A stretch of DNA of 8,640 bases from an archaeon (GTDB lineage Archaea > Thermoproteota > Nitrososphaeria > Nitrososphaerales > UBA183): positions 1 to 8,640 of the forward strand of contig JAKASI010000025.1 in NCBI GenBank assembly GCA_021828185.1, in the 5' to 3' direction. Positions 1,739 through 7,779 of this stretch are shown here, piece by piece. Under the pieces are notes generated by a model. That model was not told the DNA's origin and ran no database searches. It worked only from the letters and a program-made list of their open reading frames with translations. Each line of letters begins with the position of its first letter. Within the stretch, counting starts at the first letter, position 1. The translations under genes were made by a program, and so were the position numbers.

Positions 1739-1784
1739 CAGCACTTGTCGCGAATGCTGTGCAGGTGGTTCTCCGACTGGAAGG

Positions 1785-1792
1785 CCTAAAAC
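1785..1792 (+). promoter_or_regulatory. Candidate TATA box for the prenyl synthase gene
   Basis: CCTAAAAC sits in G+C-rich surroundings, with the purine-rich GGAAGG just upstream as a possible BRE. Its centre is about 27 bases before ATG 1816, which is the spacing expected for a leaderless archaeal transcript. This is the main reason for preferring ATG 1816 over the upstream GTG at 1759. Confidence 0.4.
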
Positions 1793-1815
1793 ACGGCGCG
1801 GCCAGCCAAGGAACG

Positions 1816-2802
1816 ATGGCTGCGTCAGGGATGAAAAGATTGGACAGTTACGTGAAGTGCGTGAACTCGGAGCTTCTCGGCCTCTCGTTCGGAAGGTCGG
1901 CGCTCGGCGGTTCGGTGAGGGACGCCCTGTCGAGCGGCGGCAAGAGGGTCAGGGCCGTGCTGGCTCTCCTCTGGTGCGAGGCGTTCTCGGGCGATTACGA
2001 ACCGGCAGTCCCCATAGCCATCGCGTACGAGCTGGCCCACTCCGCCGCCCTGGTGGAGGATGATATTATCGACGGCTCTGATACGAGGAGAGGGAAGGAG
2101 TCGGTCGTGGGCAAGTACGGCCTGCCCAACGCGATACTCGCGTCCAACATGCTCCTCTTCTACGTCCCGAAGATGGTCGCCCGCTACCGCAGGATGTCAA
2201 GCGAGAGGCTCTGCAGGCTCTTCGACCTAGTTGGCGAGTGCTGCAGGGCGACCACGGTGGGGGAGTTCCTGGACATGCAGATGGTGAAGAGGACCAGAGT
2301 TACCGAGGATGATTACGAGAGGATGATCAAGCTAAAGACGGCGTCGCTGCTGGCTGCTCCCTCCGCCAGCGGCGCGATAGTGGCTGGAGCGTCGGACGGC
2401 GAGGTCAGGACGGCATACAGGTTCGGAGAACGAATCGGCATGGCCTACCAAGTCCGGGACGACCTGCTCGATGTGATGGGCAGCGAGGCGGCGCTCGGCA
2501 AACCGGTCTTCACCGACGTGAGGGAAGGGAAGAAGAGCCTCGTGACCATGCACACGTTGGGCAGGTGTTCAGGAGATGAGAGGCGCTTCGTCGAAGGCCT
2601 CTTCGGCAGGAAGTCGCTCGAAGACTGGGAGGTCGAGAGGATGAGGCGGCTGGTGCGGAGATACGGCTCGGTCGAGTATTGCGAGAAGAGGGCGCTGCGA
2701 TACGTGGGGGAGGCGAAGAGGCTCCTCCGCTCCGTCAAGCGGTCGGAGGCGCGGAGCAGGCTCTTAGAGCTCTGCGATTATCTCTCAGAGCGGGATTACT
2801 GA
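1816..2802 (+). CDS. Polyprenyl diphosphate synthase (GGPP synthase family)
   Basis: The family condenses isopentenyl diphosphate onto allylic diphosphates, making C20 or longer chains for archaeal membrane ether lipids or quinone tails. In the 328-residue product, counted from ATG 1816, GGKRVR is at residues 41-46 and the first aspartate-rich motif DDIID is at 82-86, followed by DTRRG. TTVGEFLDM lies in the middle, and YQVRDDLLD carries the second aspartate-rich motif at 215-219, followed by the basic EGKKS. All Mg-diphosphate-binding aspartates are present, so it should be active, and the length is typical. The residues 5 and 8 before the first Asp of DDIID are both Ala. In Sulfolobus GGPP synthase the position at -5 is a Phe that limits chain length, so a product longer than C20 is possible (inference). 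The residue before the motif is Glu where His is usual. A GTG start at 1759 would add 19 residues, but it lies upstream of the likely TATA box. The gene is monocistronic by appearance. Confidence 0.93.
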   Translation: MAASGMKRLDSYVKCVNSELLGLSFGRSALGGSVRDALSSGGKRVRAVLALLWCEAFSGDYEPAVPIAIAYELAHSAALVEDDIIDGSDTRRGKESVVGKYGLPNAILASNMLLFYVPKMVARYRRMSSERLCRLFDLVGECCRATTVGEFLDMQMVKRTRVTEDDYERMIKLKTASLLAAPSASGAIVAGASDGEVRTAYRFGERIGMAYQVRDDLLDVMGSEAALGKPVFTDVREGKKSLVTMHTLGRCSGDERRFVEGLFGRKSLEDWEVERMRRLVRRYGSVEYCEKRALRYVGEAKRLLRSVKRSEARSRLLELCDYLSERDY

Positions 2803-3798: not shown

Positions 3799-6183
3799 TT
3801 GCAGCCCACCCATCTATCTTACGACAGGGGGACCCTTCTTATCAGGGGTGATGCCAAGGTCCCTTACTCCACCTGGGACGAGAGGGTGAGGGGGTTCAGG
3901 GCCCAGGCCCTCTACTATAGGGAGATAGTCGACTTCCTGAAGAAGAGCGAGCTCGGCGAGGTCAAGGACGGGGTGGAGGATCTCCCACCCTGCCCTGACC
4001 TGAAGTGCGCGGGCAAGCTGAGGGCGTACCAGAGGAAGGCGCTCGAATCCTGGGACAGGGCGGGGAAGCGGGGCGTCATTGTGCTCCCAACTGGCGCGGG
4101 CAAGACCGTGATAGGCATGAAGGCGATGGAGCTGGTGAACAGGCCCTCCGTGGTGATCGTCCCGACGCTCGACCTCCTTGAGCAGTGGAGGAGGAGGGTC
4201 GCGGAGGACCTCGGAGTCGAGGTCGGGGTCTACGGCGGAGGCGAGAACACCCTGAAGGCGGTCACCGTCTGCACCTACGACTCAGCCTTCCTGAGGGCCG
4301 GAGAGCTGGGGAACAAGTTCAAGCTGCTGATGTTCGATGAGTGTGTTACTGGGGACACGCAGGTGACAATGGCAGATGGAACGACCAAACCTATCAAAGA
4401 TATCAATGTCGGGGATTCGGTCCTTTCAGCCGCCAATATCTCTCGACGTGTGACTTACAAGTGGAATCAAGGAATACGTCCGATCATCCAGCTGACTTTG
4501 GCTGATGGGCGAGTGCTACGTTGCACGCCAGAACATCAGATATTCGAAAGAGGCGGATTGACAGTGGCCGTTAATTGCAGAACTCCATTATGTATGGACA
4601 AGGATGCAAAGTCCAGCGAGCCACAGGGGATGCCCGGTTTGCAAGAGCCGGTTTACGCACAGATCCTCCTTGTTCAAGCACTTGAGGGCGATTCATGGCA
4701 TAAATCCAAGATACGAGTGTCCAACATGTGGGAAACCATTTCAGACTGTTGCACAGTTGGGAGGTCATCAAATTACTGCACACACCAATCACAACCTGTG
4801 GGTTTCGCGTATCCACCACTGGTCAATCAAGAAGAAAGACGATTGGAACGCTTTCAGAAAGAGGATGAGCGAAGAGCGCACCCTAGGTGGGAATCCAAAC
4901 TGGAAGGGCGGGACCTCACGGAGCACTCTGAGACGGCTGACCTTCGGGGTCTGGCGACAGAAAAGGGAGTGCCGTTTCTGCGGCAGGACCGACACTCTCG
5001 ATGTCCATCACAAGGACTGGGACAAGACTCACAACGTTCCAGGAAACATCATAGTGCTCTGCCGGTCATGTCACACGAGCATTCACAGAGGAGGGCAGAT
5101 GGCGTTGATGGCGATGGCTCTGCGGTACTCTCCTTCGGAGGACATACGGCTTCTGCTAAACTTGATTCCGTACAAGTCGTACAGGTTGATTCGACTCTTA
5201 GAAGTGAAGAAGTATTCGACATCGAAGTAGACGAAGACCATAGTTTCTTCGCCAACGGGGTAGCAGTCTCGAACTGCCACCACCTCCCGGCGGAGAGCTT
5301 CAGGCAGATAGCGGAGATGTTCACGGCCCCGTACAGGATGGGCTTGACGGCCACCTACGAGAGGGACGACATGCTCCACCTGGAGCTCCCGAGGCTCATC
5401 GGGGGGGTGGTGTACAGACTCCAGCCAGAGGATTTGGCGGGCAGGTACCTCTCAGACTACACCGTCGAGAGGGTGAACGTGGAGCTGACTGAGGGTGAAA
5501 AAGCAGAGTACCGCCAGAACTACAGGCAGTTCACAGACTACCTTGAGAAGAACCGCATCTGGATGAGGACGCCCATGGACTTCCAGAGGTTCATAATGAG
5601 GACGTCGAGGGACCCCGAGGCCAGGAGGGCCCTCCTGGCGAGGAACAGGGCAGTCAAGGTGGCCTTCAACTCCGAGGCGAAGCTTGACAGGCTGGATGGG
5701 ATACTGCGCGAGAACCCGGACGAGAGGGTCCTTGTCTTCACCCAGCACAACGACCTGGTCTACAGGATATCGAAGAGGTTCCTCCTCCCGTTCATCACCC
5801 ACACCACAGCCAAGGAGGAGAGGTACGAGGTCCTGAAGGGCTTCAGGGAGGGGAGGTTCCGGGCGGTCGCCACGTCGAAGGTCCTGGACGAGGGGATAGA
5901 CGTGCCGGAGGCCTCCATCGGGGTGATAGTGAGCGGGACCGGGAGCTCGAGGGAGTTCATACAGAGGCTCGGGAGGCTTCTTAGGAAGAGCGAGGGGAAG
6001 GGGAGGGCTAGGCTGATCGAGCTTGTGTCGAGGGAGACGTCGGAGACGAGGACGAGCTCTAGGAGGAAGCGCACCAGGGGAAGGGGGGCGCGGAAGGGCA
6101 AAGCCGTCCCAGGTGCCGAGAAGGAGGGGGCCGAAGAGCCCATCGCAAAGGGGGCCGACGAGGGAGAACTCTTCGAGGAGTAG
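3799..6183 (+). CDS. xpb: XPB/Rad25-type DNA repair helicase precursor, containing an intein
   Basis: Superfamily 2 DNA translocase/helicase that opens damaged DNA and partners with Bax1. The precursor is 794 residues; after removal of the intein (residues 182-492) the mature protein is 483, close to archaeal XPB length. Residues 1-75 form the damage-recognition-like N-terminus (HLSYDRGTLLIRG). Walker A PTGAGKT is at 97-103. Motif II starts with DE at 180-181 and is completed by CHH after splicing. LTAT motif III is at 516-519, followed by ERDD, a variant of the XPB RED motif. Motif V is VLDEGIDVPEA and motif VI is FIQRLGRLLR. The C-terminal 50 residues are first strongly basic (SSRRKRTRGRGARKGK) and then acidic (ADEGELFEE), and probably disordered. 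TTG 3799 is the only standard start after the in-frame TGA at 3724-3726. The stop is 9 bases before Bax1, so the two form an operon. The extein codons are G+C-rich, unlike the intein. Confidence 0.95.
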   Translation: MQPTHLSYDRGTLLIRGDAKVPYSTWDERVRGFRAQALYYREIVDFLKKSELGEVKDGVEDLPPCPDLKCAGKLRAYQRKALESWDRAGKRGVIVLPTGAGKTVIGMKAMELVNRPSVVIVPTLDLLEQWRRRVAEDLGVEVGVYGGGENTLKAVTVCTYDSAFLRAGELGNKFKLLMFDECVTGDTQVTMADGTTKPIKDINVGDSVLSAANISRRVTYKWNQGIRPIIQLTLADGRVLRCTPEHQIFERGGLTVAVNCRTPLCMDKDAKSSEPQGMPGLQEPVYAQILLVQALEGDSWHKSKIRVSNMWETISDCCTVGRSSNYCTHQSQPVGFAYPPLVNQEERRLERFQKEDERRAHPRWESKLEGRDLTEHSETADLRGLATEKGVPFLRQDRHSRCPSQGLGQDSQRSRKHHSALPVMSHEHSQRRADGVDGDGSAVLSFGGHTASAKLDSVQVVQVDSTLRSEEVFDIEVDEDHSFFANGVAVSNCHHLPAESFRQIAEMFTAPYRMGLTATYERDDMLHLELPRLIGGVVYRLQPEDLAGRYLSDYTVERVNVELTEGEKAEYRQNYRQFTDYLEKNRIWMRTPMDFQRFIMRTSRDPEARRALLARNRAVKVAFNSEAKLDRLDGILRENPDERVLVFTQHNDLVYRISKRFLLPFITHTTAKEERYEVLKGFREGRFRAVATSKVLDEGIDVPEASIGVIVSGTGSSREFIQRLGRLLRKSEGKGRARLIELVSRETSETRTSSRRKRTRGRGARKGKAVPGAEKEGAEEPIAKGADEGELFEE
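4570..4577 (+). promoter_or_regulatory. Possible internal promoter for the nested endonuclease
   Basis: GTTAATTG inside the intein is TATA-like and is centred about 30 bases before ATG 4604. That fits a leaderless or nearly leaderless transcript. No Shine-Dalgarno is present before ATG 4604 (AAGG abuts the codon), so internal translation from the XPB message looks poor. This makes a private promoter worth testing, but the element itself is weak evidence. Confidence 0.2.
4604..5230 (+). CDS. Zinc-finger HNH homing endonuclease nested in the intein in the +1 frame
   Basis: 208 residues, ending at TAG 5228-5230. Two canonical C2H2 fingers come first: CPVCKSRF...HLRAIH and CPTCGKPF...HQITAH, each C-x2-C-x12-H-x4-H. 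Next is NPNWKGG with a downstream Trp, a common lead-in of HNH homing nucleases. The HNH domain follows: CRFCGRTDTLDVHHKDWD, then NVPGNIIVLCRSCHTSIH, with both Cys pairs, the catalytic HH, the Asn and the closing His all present. It should therefore be an active metal-dependent nickase or nuclease that recognises the uninterrupted xpb site (inference from family). The frame opens only after TGA 4559-4561, and ATG 4604 is its only standard start before the first finger. It is in the +1 frame relative to XPB, so it is not part of the intein polypeptide. Its last 14 codons or so also encode the approach to intein block F. How it is translated is unknown: own promoter, internal initiation or +1 frameshifting are all possible. 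Confidence 0.88.
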   Translation: MQSPASHRGCPVCKSRFTHRSSLFKHLRAIHGINPRYECPTCGKPFQTVAQLGGHQITAHTNHNLWVSRIHHWSIKKKDDWNAFRKRMSEERTLGGNPNWKGGTSRSTLRRLTFGVWRQKRECRFCGRTDTLDVHHKDWDKTHNVPGNIIVLCRSCHTSIHRGGQMALMAMALRYSPSEDIRLLLNLIPYKSYRLIRLLEVKKYSTSK

Positions 6184-6192
6184 CGAGCCAGG

Positions 6193-7779
6193 ATGCTCCC
6201 TTCCAACCTCCTCAGGGCCAAGATCTCCAGGGGGAAGATGCGCCCCCTCTATGTGGGGCTCGACGCCGACATGCTGGCCCTCGCCGAGAGAGTCTCCGGC
6301 GTCTACCGCGACTCCGTAGGGAAGAGGAAGGGCGAGCTCCTCGAACGCCTGGGAGAGGTGGAAGGGGAGGGCCACGACTTCAAGCTCGTCAGGGGTTTGG
6401 CGGCCCTCCTAGAAAGGAGGTGCGCCTTCGAGGCCGACAGCGCGACGGACCCGATGCAGGCGAGGATGGCGGTCTTCGAGGAGGCGAGCAGGAGGAGGGT
6501 GACGGGCGCGAAGGAGAGGGGGGAGGTTGTGCGCGAGGTCGCGGCGAAGCTGGGCGTGACGGAGGAGGCGCTCGAGAGGACCCTCTTCAGCGACCTTGAC
6601 GAGGAGCTGATACTGAAGAAGTTCGAGCCCCTCGGCCCGGAGCCCCTCCTCAGGAGGTACAACCTCTCCCTCACCCAGACCCTCCTCTTCAAGTCGCTCA
6701 GGGTCGAGTTCTCTGCGTCTGGGAACTGGAAGAACATCTTCCGGGGCGTGAAGAGGTTCGGTCTGATCTACTCGGTGGAGAGAAGCGACGACGACGAAGG
6801 CGGGTACACCGTCTCCCTGGACGGCCCCCTCTCCCTCTTCAAGCTGACCGACCGCTACGGCACGTCGGTGGCCAAGCTCCTCCCCCTGATCGCGGCGTCA
6901 GACTCCTGGAGGGTCAAGGCGGAGATACTCTCGAGGAGCAGGGGGAACAGGGTCTACACGTTCGAGGCGGAGAGCGGGGAGCTGAAGGGCGTGATCGACG
7001 CCTCAGAGGACGAGGGCAGGCCGATGAATCTTTACGACAGCGCGGTGGAAGAGAAGTTCGCCAGGTCGTTCCTCTCCTACGGCTCCGGGTGGGCTCTGAA
7101 GAGGGAGCCAGAGCCCCTCATAGCGGGGAGGCACGTTCTGATACCCGATTTCAGCTTCGAGAAGGGAGGGGCGAAGGTCTACCTGGAGGTGGTGGGCTTC
7201 TGGACCCCGGGCTATCTGGAGAGGAAGATAGACAAACTGAACTCCGTCACGGGCGTCGACATGATCATCGCCGTGGACGAGAGCCTCGCCTGCGCCAAGG
7301 TGGAGAGGCTGAAGCGCAAGGCTGTCGTCATCTACTACAGGAAGGAGGTCCCGGTGAAGCCCGTTATTGAGCACCTGAAGGAAAGGGAGGGGTCAATCCT
7401 GAGGGCGCAGGCGGGAGCGATCCGGAGGGAGGACATCACCCTCAGGGGGGACGTCGTGAGCCTGGGCGACATCGCGAAGGAGAAGGGGGTCTCGGTCGAG
7501 TCGCTGGCACTGGCCCTGGCGGGATTTGAGGCCGACGGTTACGTCAGGGCCGGCGACCGCTTCATCTCCAAGGCGAAGCTCGATGAGATAGACGGGAAGC
7601 TCGCCGGGGTCGAGATGCTCGCAGACGCCCTGAGGGTGATCGAGGGTTCGGGGGTGAGAGAGGAGGACGGCCAGAAAGTGCTGGACGCCCTGGGTTACAC
7701 TTCGATCTGGGCAGGGATGGAGATAGAAAAGGTCAGGATATCAAAGCGCACGACAGTGGCATCGGAAGGCGAGACCTAG
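6193..7779 (+). CDS. bax1: Bax1 nuclease, partner of XPB (DUF790)
   Basis: Bax1 (binds archaeal XPB) is a structure-specific nuclease that cuts near bubble junctions opened by XPB. This 528-residue protein starts MLPSNLLRAKISRGKMRPLY, the hallmark N-terminus of the family. The nuclease core is in the C-terminal half. IPDFSF has Asp319, and KVYLEVVGFW has Glu332 followed by YLERK. Together they form a PD-(D/E)XK-type site with the DUF790 VGFW signature. About 120 further residues (from about 400) read as winged-helix-like segments (LGDIAKEKGVSVESLALALAG, then GYVRAGDRFISKAKL) and may contact DNA or XPB. ATG 6193 lies 9 bases after the XPB stop, and the Shine-Dalgarno-like GAGGAG overlaps the last XPB codons, so the two are co-transcribed and probably made in balanced amounts. 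Confidence 0.93.
   Translation: MLPSNLLRAKISRGKMRPLYVGLDADMLALAERVSGVYRDSVGKRKGELLERLGEVEGEGHDFKLVRGLAALLERRCAFEADSATDPMQARMAVFEEASRRRVTGAKERGEVVREVAAKLGVTEEALERTLFSDLDEELILKKFEPLGPEPLLRRYNLSLTQTLLFKSLRVEFSASGNWKNIFRGVKRFGLIYSVERSDDDEGGYTVSLDGPLSLFKLTDRYGTSVAKLLPLIAASDSWRVKAEILSRSRGNRVYTFEAESGELKGVIDASEDEGRPMNLYDSAVEEKFARSFLSYGSGWALKREPEPLIAGRHVLIPDFSFEKGGAKVYLEVVGFWTPGYLERKIDKLNSVTGVDMIIAVDESLACAKVERLKRKAVVIYYRKEVPVKPVIEHLKEREGSILRAQAGAIRREDITLRGDVVSLGDIAKEKGVSVESLALALAGFEADGYVRAGDRFISKAKLDEIDGKLAGVEMLADALRVIEGSGVREEDGQKVLDALGYTSIWAGMEIEKVRISKRTTVASEGET

What the first reader, a model, noticed from the sequence alone, without database searches (positions are those of the whole stretch)
4604..5230. 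Homing endonuclease encoded out of frame inside an intein
The intein's splicing blocks are in the XPB frame, yet its complete HNH endonuclease with two C2H2 fingers is read in the +1 frame of the same DNA. Canonical inteins carry the endonuclease as an in-frame domain. Here it would be an independent protein made from a gene nested in the coding sequence of another protein. I do not know of an established intein class built this way.
Basis: partly seen in the sequence, partly recalled or inferred. Interest (0 to 1): 0.93.

Follow-up and report, generated by a model that had tools for sequence, protein, structure and literature searches.

The report
Intein hiding an out-of-frame homing nuclease
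In archaea, a DNA-repair helicase gene carries a predicted self-splicing insert whose DNA, read one base over, encodes a second, conserved protein that is a predicted DNA-cutting enzyme and would likely spread the insert; related genomes show the same double-read design.

Summary
The XPB helicase ORF (3799-6183) contains an intein (4342-5274) whose splicing blocks pass NCBIfam cut-offs; the +1 frame of its middle encodes a 208-aa protein with two C2H2 fingers and an HNH motif (4604-5230). It is not a sequencing error: an archaeal contig from another assembly (L001) has the same arrangement with both frames open, a second (L002/L008) agrees over the parts held, and three XPB-intein protein clusters back-translate into DNA that can also spell the HNH almost perfectly, unlike shuffled controls. 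Substitutions between window and L001 move their third-position peak from the XPB frame to the HNH frame over the nested ORF and back (P=6e-13). dN/dS is 0.15 in the HNH frame and 0.87 in the overlapping XPB frame, which is nevertheless free of stops (about 7 expected, P=1e-4). The intein is patchy at one site. Best reading: a mobile intein whose homing endonuclease is a separate overlapping gene. Splicing, translation and cutting are inferred; no ribosome-binding site supports separate initiation. Closest precedent: out-of-frame HNH insertions in phage methylases (ShiLan), which lack splicing domains. Nine literature searches listed no intein built this way.

The parts
3799..4341 (+). XPB/Rad25-type helicase, N-extein, ending in the DE of the Walker B DExH motif
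   Evidence: Pfam XPB_DRD 3.8e-16 and ResIII 7.4e-25; alignment with intein-less relatives
4342..5274 (+). Intein in the XPB frame (311 codons), Cys1 to Asn311, followed by Cys+1
   Evidence: NCBIfam intein_Nterm and intein_Cterm over cut-off; absent from the homologous site in relatives
4342..4596 (+). Intein N-terminal splicing part (85 codons; blocks A and B, with TPEH)
   Evidence: intein_Nterm match to residues 1-68; dN/dS 0.14 in the XPB frame over 4342-4600
4559..4561 (+). TGA stop in the +1 frame just upstream of the nested start; also present in L001 and L002
4571..4576 (+). TTAATT, a candidate TATA-like element 33 nt before the nested ATG (TTAAAT at -39 in L001 and L002); post hoc lead only
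4604..5230 (+). Nested +1-frame ORF, 208 aa, predicted C2H2-C2H2-HNH homing endonuclease
   Evidence: relatives in L001 (whole), L002 (cut by the contig end) and P0001
4631..4696 (+). C2H2 finger 1 (C10, C13, H26, H31 of the nested protein)
   Evidence: PF00096 residues 10-31; residues invariant in the two-row alignment A1
4718..4783 (+). C2H2 finger 2 (C39, C42, H55, H60)
   Evidence: PF13912 residues 36-60; residues invariant in the two-row alignment A1
4970..5089 (+). HNH motif with C-x2-C pairs (C123/C126, H135, H136, N148, C153/C156, H157, H161)
   Evidence: PF01844 residues 123-162; residues invariant in the two-row alignment A1
5206..5274 (+). Intein C-terminal splicing blocks F and G (...DEDHSFFANGVAVSN), XPB frame
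   Evidence: intein_Cterm match; 5 of 6 substitutions to L001 at XPB third positions
5275..6183 (+). XPB C-extein starting with Cys+1 (DE|CHH; V, T, I, A or S there in 102 of 105 intein-less relatives)
   Evidence: Pfam ERCC3_RAD25_C and Helicase_C
4267..4341 (+). 75 nt of N-extein next to the insertion point, anomalously divergent from the nearest intein-less DNA relative L003: candidate co-conversion tract
   Evidence: 22/75 mismatches against 103/1068 elsewhere, P=4e-6; against L037 only P=0.06

Best explanation
A predicted intein in an archaeal XPB helicase gene carries in its middle a second, conserved reading frame (+1) that encodes a predicted zinc-finger HNH homing endonuclease, which is likely made as a separate protein and would spread the intein, while the XPB frame stays open through the same bases. 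Shown: both frames are open, in the window and in an independent relative; the HNH frame is under purifying selection in the nested part and the XPB frame in the splicing blocks and exteins; the XPB frame is free of stops to a degree that chance does not give; the element is present in some XPB genes and absent from the same site in close relatives. Inferred: the ribosome reads the XPB frame straight through, giving a precursor whose intein middle is a non-homologous linker, and the N- and C-blocks (about 121 residues together) splice it out. The HNH would be started separately at the nested ATG, from an internal transcript or by internal initiation, bind intein-less xpb alleles through its fingers, cut near the DExHH codons, and be copied in with the intein and its Cys+1 codon by gene conversion.
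For: L001 (different assembly and record): XPB frame open through the intein, +1 HNH ORF of 216 aa; L002 and L008 agree over the parts held. P0001, a 231-aa protein cluster of 10 sequences, continues into the +1 reading of the intein C-block as seen in L001 and L008, so it too is nested. P0002, P0003 and P0004 (23, 6 and 1 sequences) keep the XPB frame open; the best back-translations of their inteins encode the HNH at 1096, 1071 and 1110 of a possible 1128, against 311-359 for their 15 shuffled controls; three LAGLIDADG inteins at the same site score 330-377, close to their own controls (324-379). Substitutions window-L001 by XPB codon position 1/2/3: N-extein 18/18/68, N-block 8/12/34, HNH region 54/24/26, block F/G 1/0/5, C-extein 43/38/126; window-L002, as far as L002 goes: N-extein 25/18/80, N-block 8/12/32, HNH part 33/14/15; HNH region against the rest, window-L001, P=6e-13. 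dN/dS: HNH frame 0.15; the same bases in the XPB frame 0.87 and in the third frame 1.55; N-block 0.14 in the XPB frame and 2.46 in the +1 frame; exteins 0.15 and 0.10. Protein identity window-L001: HNH 79%, overlapping XPB-frame stretch 63%. XPB frame open: P=1e-4; 45 random HNH-synonymous changes leave it open in 1.7% of 10,000 runs; HNH third positions vary less than extein third positions (54/185 against 194/449, P=0.001). Mobility: three separate positions in a 112-row extein tree (one of them rests on P0004, which may be a chimera), Cys+1 in 8 of 8 intein-bearing proteins against 3 of 105 intein-less ones, divergent 5' flank.
Against: No ribosome-binding site stands out: anti-SD energy before the nested ATG (-2.0) is weaker than at most ATGs of the window (84.8% of 92 controls are as strong or stronger) and ordinary in L001 and L002 (42.9% of 42 and 68.3% of 60); the XPB start itself is also weak at -2.7. 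The start codons of window and L001 are not at the same aligned position. No expression, splicing or cleavage data exist. Both AlphaFold models are uninformative (mean pLDDT 39.9 and 30.7). Pfam scores are marginal (HNH at cut-off, Intein_splicing just below). The penultimate His of block G is Ser in the window, L001, P0002, P0003 and P0004. DNA evidence rests on one complete relative and one split over two contigs; the other clusters are known as protein only. In 400 genomes of the order, 108 matched the HNH profile, but apart from the two already known all at 36 bits or less, mostly over the fingers alone. Intein and extein divergence between window and L001 are similar, so recent transfer between these two lineages is not indicated. 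Naive dN/dS in overlapping frames is biased, though here the contrast is large.
Confidence: 0.8

Rival explanations
1. Sequencing or assembly error: two compensating indels move an ordinary in-frame HNH domain out of frame.
For: The window stands alone: no whole genome is held for it and no reads are available.
Against: The same frame relation is in L001 and, over the parts held, in L002/L008. The XPB-frame stretch is alignable between five sequences at 59-95%. If the HNH were in frame, XPB-frame proteins such as P0002-P0004 would show it; they do not.
Confidence: 0.02
2. Programmed frameshifting: the ribosome shifts +1 before the HNH and back after it, or shifts once, so the HNH is made as part of the intein or as a truncated fusion to the XPB N-terminus.
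For: No stop lies in the +1 frame between 4562 and 4603, so a shift there is possible; there is no convincing ribosome-binding site for separate initiation.
Against: If the ribosome always left the XPB frame, that frame would not need to be open, yet it is free of stops beyond chance. A single shift gives no C-block and no helicase. A TGA closes the +1 frame at 4559, and an ATG follows within about 50 nt in all three DNA sequences.
Confidence: 0.12
3. Fossil: the HNH is a recently degraded or captured ORF, no longer translated, and the intein is now a plain splicing intein with a junk linker.
For: No ribosome-binding site; few genomes carry it.
Against: dN/dS of 0.15 in the HNH frame with dS 0.66, equal to the helicase itself; the cysteines and HNH residues are identical in window and P0001.
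Confidence: 0.06
4. ShiLan-type insertion: an out-of-frame HNH in a coding gene that stays in the protein, the intein-like ends being coincidental or dead.
For: Same out-of-frame HNH idea as PMC11855218; block G lacks the usual penultimate His.
Against: N- and C-splicing blocks are over curated cut-offs; the N-block is under purifying selection (0.14); they stand in the right order at a point where LAGLIDADG inteins also sit (P0007, P0031, P0077) and are followed by Cys+1. The insertion sits inside the DExH motif, so unspliced protein would likely be an inactive helicase.
Confidence: 0.06

Closest known systems
ShiLan domain and related out-of-frame HNH insertions in phage DNA methylases (PMC11855218: abstract, passages and sections 3.6 and 4 read)
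   Same: A zinc-finger HNH endonuclease encoded in another frame of an insertion that keeps the host frame open; disjunct distribution; no evident ribosome-binding site.
   Different: ShiLan has no detectable splicing blocks and is thought to stay in the protein; it is in phages. Here the carrier is an intein with conserved splicing blocks inside the DExH motif of an archaeal helicase.
Canonical full-length inteins with an in-frame endonuclease domain (here P0007, P0031, P0077: LAGLIDADG inteins at the same xpb site; PMC7765530, passages seen)
   Same: Hint splicing blocks, site, Cys+1, patchy distribution.
   Different: Their endonuclease is read in the XPB frame and is part of the spliced intein; joint back-translation shows no hidden HNH.
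Group I intron HNH endonucleases such as I-HmuI (recalled)
   Same: HNH homing endonuclease translated from its own ORF inside a self-splicing element.
   Different: Splicing here would be of protein, not RNA, so the host reading frame must stay open through the nuclease gene; no Rfam match in 4200-5400 up to E 0.1.
Mini-inteins (recalled)
   Same: The in-frame splicing residues (N85 plus C36) amount to a mini-intein.
   Different: A 190-residue stretch, dictated by the overlapping gene, lies between the blocks.

Membership tests
Intein | N-terminal splicing block with catalytic Cys/Ser at position 1 and block B TxxH | tested here: met
   intein_Nterm 33.4 bits, cut-off 24.5; C1 and TPEH invariant in A5 and A7
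Intein | C-terminal splicing block ending in Asn before Cys/Ser/Thr+1 | tested here: met
   intein_Cterm 28.0 bits, cut-off 15.6; N311 then Cys+1; penultimate Ser instead of His
Intein | In-frame insertion absent from homologues at the same point | tested here: met
   105 intein-less homologues, 5 with this intein, 3 with LAGLIDADG inteins, of 113 sorted
Intein | Protein splicing | not testable with these tools
   no expression data; inferred from selection on the N-block
Canonical intein with in-frame homing endonuclease | Endonuclease read in the intein frame | tested here: not met
   HNH in +1 in window and L001, selection in the +1 frame
HNH homing endonuclease | HNH motif and DNA-binding module | tested here: met
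   PF01844 at cut-off, PF00096 and PF13912 over cut-off; PHROG HNH families to 1.1e-11
HNH homing endonuclease | Cleaves the empty allele | not testable with these tools
   inferred from patchy presence and the divergent 5' flank
ShiLan-type out-of-frame HNH insertion | HNH out of frame in an open insertion | tested here: met
ShiLan-type out-of-frame HNH insertion | No splicing domain in the host frame | tested here: not met
   splicing blocks present and the N-block conserved

The most novel reading that the evidence does not exclude
A new class of intein: the splicing domain and the homing endonuclease are two separate proteins encoded in overlapping frames of the same DNA, so the selfish element makes its nuclease without passing through the host protein, and the host gene must keep a second, meaningless frame open through the nuclease gene.
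Probability: 0.75. Interest if true: 0.9.

Novelty: new variant of a known kind. Interest (0 to 1): 0.83.

Why it matters
Textbook inteins carry the endonuclease as an in-frame domain, so nuclease supply is tied to host gene expression and protein splicing. Here the two functions share the DNA but not the frame. That would give a natural case of a gene lodged in another gene's reading frame, suggest how mini-inteins may capture free HNH genes, and offer an archaeal model for the out-of-frame homing nucleases so far reported in phages. It also warns that annotation of one frame per locus hides nucleases: two searches of a 5.8-billion-protein collection found the nested protein only as one cluster of 10.

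Tried and rejected
Structure prediction of the HNH (4-row alignment) and of the intein (5 rows) gave pLDDT 39.9 and 30.7, meaningless, so no fold search was run. Viral contigs: two scans, no relative. Phage records: only distant HNH matches, 73 records, none covering 80% of the query. A profile search for remoter proteins gave 26 hits at E up to 1; after P0001 the best is 5.8e-8 over 22% of the query; four of these (P0123-P0126) were read and have other architectures. Ribosome-binding-site test: negative. TATA-like hexamer: 3 of 3 DNA sequences have it at -33 or -39 and 0 of 91 other ATGs of the window do, but the hexamer set was chosen after seeing the sequence and the bases also encode intein residues; a lead only.

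Survey of other inteins in the order for nested nucleases: 91 of 300 genomes had an intein match; only 30 of the loci, the best-scoring, were fetched. Off-frame ORFs of 110 aa or more nested in the host frame occur in 6 of 30, and in 7 of 12 loci from the family search. These were read by eye (in one search only their first 60 residues), not scanned with HMMs; none looks like HNH. They show that ORF length alone proves little in such genomes, so I rely on selection and recurrence. In one search one weak match (G265, 33.3 bits, 7-170 of the profile, one stop inside) spans fingers and HNH; it was not followed up.

An RNA intron was rejected: no Rfam match and the host frame is open. A fresh transfer between the window and L001 lineages was considered and not supported: intein and extein diverge similarly. 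The co-conversion reading is one-sided: the 75 nt 5' of the site stand out against L003 (P=4e-6; the most divergent of 363 windows starts at -71), but against L037 P is only 0.06, and the 3' side shows nothing; the 75-nt length was chosen. P0004 looks chimeric (N-extein and intein like P0003, C-extein like P0037): either co-conversion or an assembly chimera, so its separate tree position is weak evidence.

Rows dropped: of 123 proteins (P0001-P0121, window, L001), 9 lacked the searched DE-x-HHL motif (453-500 aa, too short for an intein), P0001 is the HNH itself, and P0094 (aberrant C-terminus) was left out of the tree, leaving 112 rows. The intein pattern in that script demanded Cys at +1, but the only proteins over 600 aa are the eight it found, so none was lost. 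The 120 XPB proteins used are the listed part of 5811 hits among 8000 scored candidates. The genome-collection scan ran on two peptide words only, so it is no census.
Full report
What is there. The window encodes an archaeal XPB helicase (3799-6183), followed by a DUF790 protein (6193-7779, 3.5e-124; recalled: the XPB partner nuclease Bax1). The nearest intein-less protein is P0005 (91% over 480 extein columns); P0006, 88% identical, is named Nitrososphaerota. No whole genome is held for the window. Within XPB, between the E and the next residue of the Walker B DExH motif, lies a 311-codon intein (4342-5274). Its ends score over the curated cut-offs for intein N- and C-terminal regions. In the +1 frame the same DNA encodes 208 residues with two C2H2 fingers and an HNH motif (4604-5230).

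Is it an error? No. A genome-collection scan found L001 (Thaumarchaeota TA_13, VBPP01000068.1), with XPB open over 761 residues and a 216-aa HNH in +1. It also found L002 (TA_14, VBPQ01000093.1), which runs off its contig inside the HNH, both frames open, with the other end on a second contig, L008, where both frames are again open up to the expected +1 stop in the C-block (its first bases hold a short duplicated stretch). The protein collection gave one HNH relative, P0001 (10 sequences), whose tail is the +1 reading of an intein C-block. It also gave three XPB proteins with the same intein in the XPB frame, P0002, P0003 and P0004 (23, 6 and 1 sequences). For these I asked how well the +1 frame could encode the HNH P0001 over all back-translations: 1096, 1071 and 1110 of a possible 1128, against 311-359 for their 15 shuffled controls. 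Three LAGLIDADG inteins at the same site reach 330-377, close to their own controls (324-379). This shows that a hidden HNH is possible and very probable there, not that the DNA was seen.

Which frame matters where? Between window and L001, substitutions peak at XPB third positions in the exteins (68 of 104, 126 of 207) and splicing blocks (34 of 54, 5 of 6). In the HNH region they peak at XPB first positions, which are HNH third positions (54 of 104). L002 shows the same as far as it goes: 80 of 123 at XPB third positions in the N-extein, 32 of 52 in the N-block, 33 of 62 at first positions in its HNH part. The window-L001 contrast has P=6e-13. dN/dS is 0.15 in the HNH frame, 0.87 in the XPB frame and 1.55 in the third frame over the same bases; 0.14 in the N-block, 0.15 and 0.10 in the exteins. 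The XPB-frame protein there is therefore close to unconstrained, except that it may not stop. Keeping the HNH protein and its codons but permuting synonyms gives 6.9 stops on average and an open frame with P=1e-4 (window); 7.9 and none of 20,000 (L001). Forty-five random HNH-synonymous changes leave it open in 1.7% of 10,000 runs. HNH third positions also vary less than extein third positions (54/185 against 194/449, P=0.001). This is what a nested gene inside a frame that ribosomes must read through would show.

Is it mobile? In a tree of 112 exteins the intein sits in three places and needs at least three changes; one of them, P0004, may be a chimera. The window's closest exteins, P0005 and P0006, are empty. 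Intein-bearing proteins have Cys at +1 in 8 of 8 cases; intein-less ones have V, T, I, A or S, with Cys in 3 of 105. The 75 nt before the insertion differ from L003 at 22 positions against 103 of 1068 elsewhere (P=4e-6), and among 363 windows the most divergent starts at -71. Six control pairs of relatives show no such hot spot, but against L037 the effect is weak (P=0.06), and the 3' side shows none. In the family, 7 of 46 genomes hold this XPB at E 1e-50: two with the intein and five without. Of 400 genomes of the order 108 matched the HNH profile at E 1e-5, but only G001 and G002 (the genomes of L001 and L002) above 37 bits; of 398 of the phylum only G001 matched at E 1e-9. The nearest inteins by N-block in the family (12 loci) were scanned in 7 cases: five sit in aconitase genes, two in ParA-type genes.

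How it likely works (inferred). Ribosomes translate XPB straight through, the blocks splice, and the linker is discarded. The HNH is started separately. No Shine-Dalgarno site supports this, though the XPB start is also weak. A TATA-like TTAA(T/A)T lies 33-39 nt before the ATG in the three DNA sequences, a post hoc lead that would fit an internal, nearly leaderless transcript. The HNH would cut empty xpb alleles in the DExHH codons, and repair would copy in the intein with its Cys codon.

Compared with what is known. The library searches found one line of precedent: the ShiLan insertion and others in phage methylases (PMC11855218; abstract, passages and sections 3.6 and 4 read), and an out-of-frame HNH in a methylase of phage Applejack (PMC12613952; passages seen). 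These have an HNH in another frame; for ShiLan the authors found no splicing domains. A review describes full-length inteins as having the endonuclease domain embedded between splicing domains (PMC7765530; passages seen). Nine searches listed no paper on an intein with an out-of-frame nuclease, judged from titles and starts of abstracts. Three of the lists were capped below the number of papers found, and bioRxiv as a library and most subscription journals are not held. I call this a new variant: an intein by its splicing blocks, a homing nuclease by its domains, joined in a way that neither definition covers.

Noticed in passing
L077 (Staphylococcus phage CUB-EPI_14, ON325435.2) 2321-2803 within CDS 1162-2967: A 160-aa HNH ORF (PF01844, 2.3e-5) lies in the +1 frame of an annotated DNA-cytosine methyltransferase with no intein match at E 0.01: a ShiLan-like hidden HNH in a phage outside Mycobacterium.
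   Followed up: partly
P0007, P0031, P0077 (XPB proteins): Other XPB proteins of this group carry in-frame LAGLIDADG inteins (PF14528 or PF03161) at exactly the same DE|CHH point, so one site hosts at least three intein types.
   Followed up: partly
L080, L081, L082, L084, L087: The inteins nearest in N-block sequence sit in aconitase genes in 5 of the 7 loci scanned (of 12); in the one checked at E up to 1 (L081) Pfam names no endonuclease in the several-hundred-residue middle of the intein.
   Followed up: partly
P0004 and P0048: XPB proteins that look recombinant, with N- and C-terminal parts from different clades; in P0004 the break follows the intein. Gene conversion or assembly chimera.
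   Followed up: partly
window 6193-7779: DUF790 protein directly after xpb, probably the XPB partner nuclease Bax1 (name recalled).
   Followed up: no
window 1759-2802: Polyprenyl synthetase gene (PF00348, 6.5e-62).
   Followed up: no
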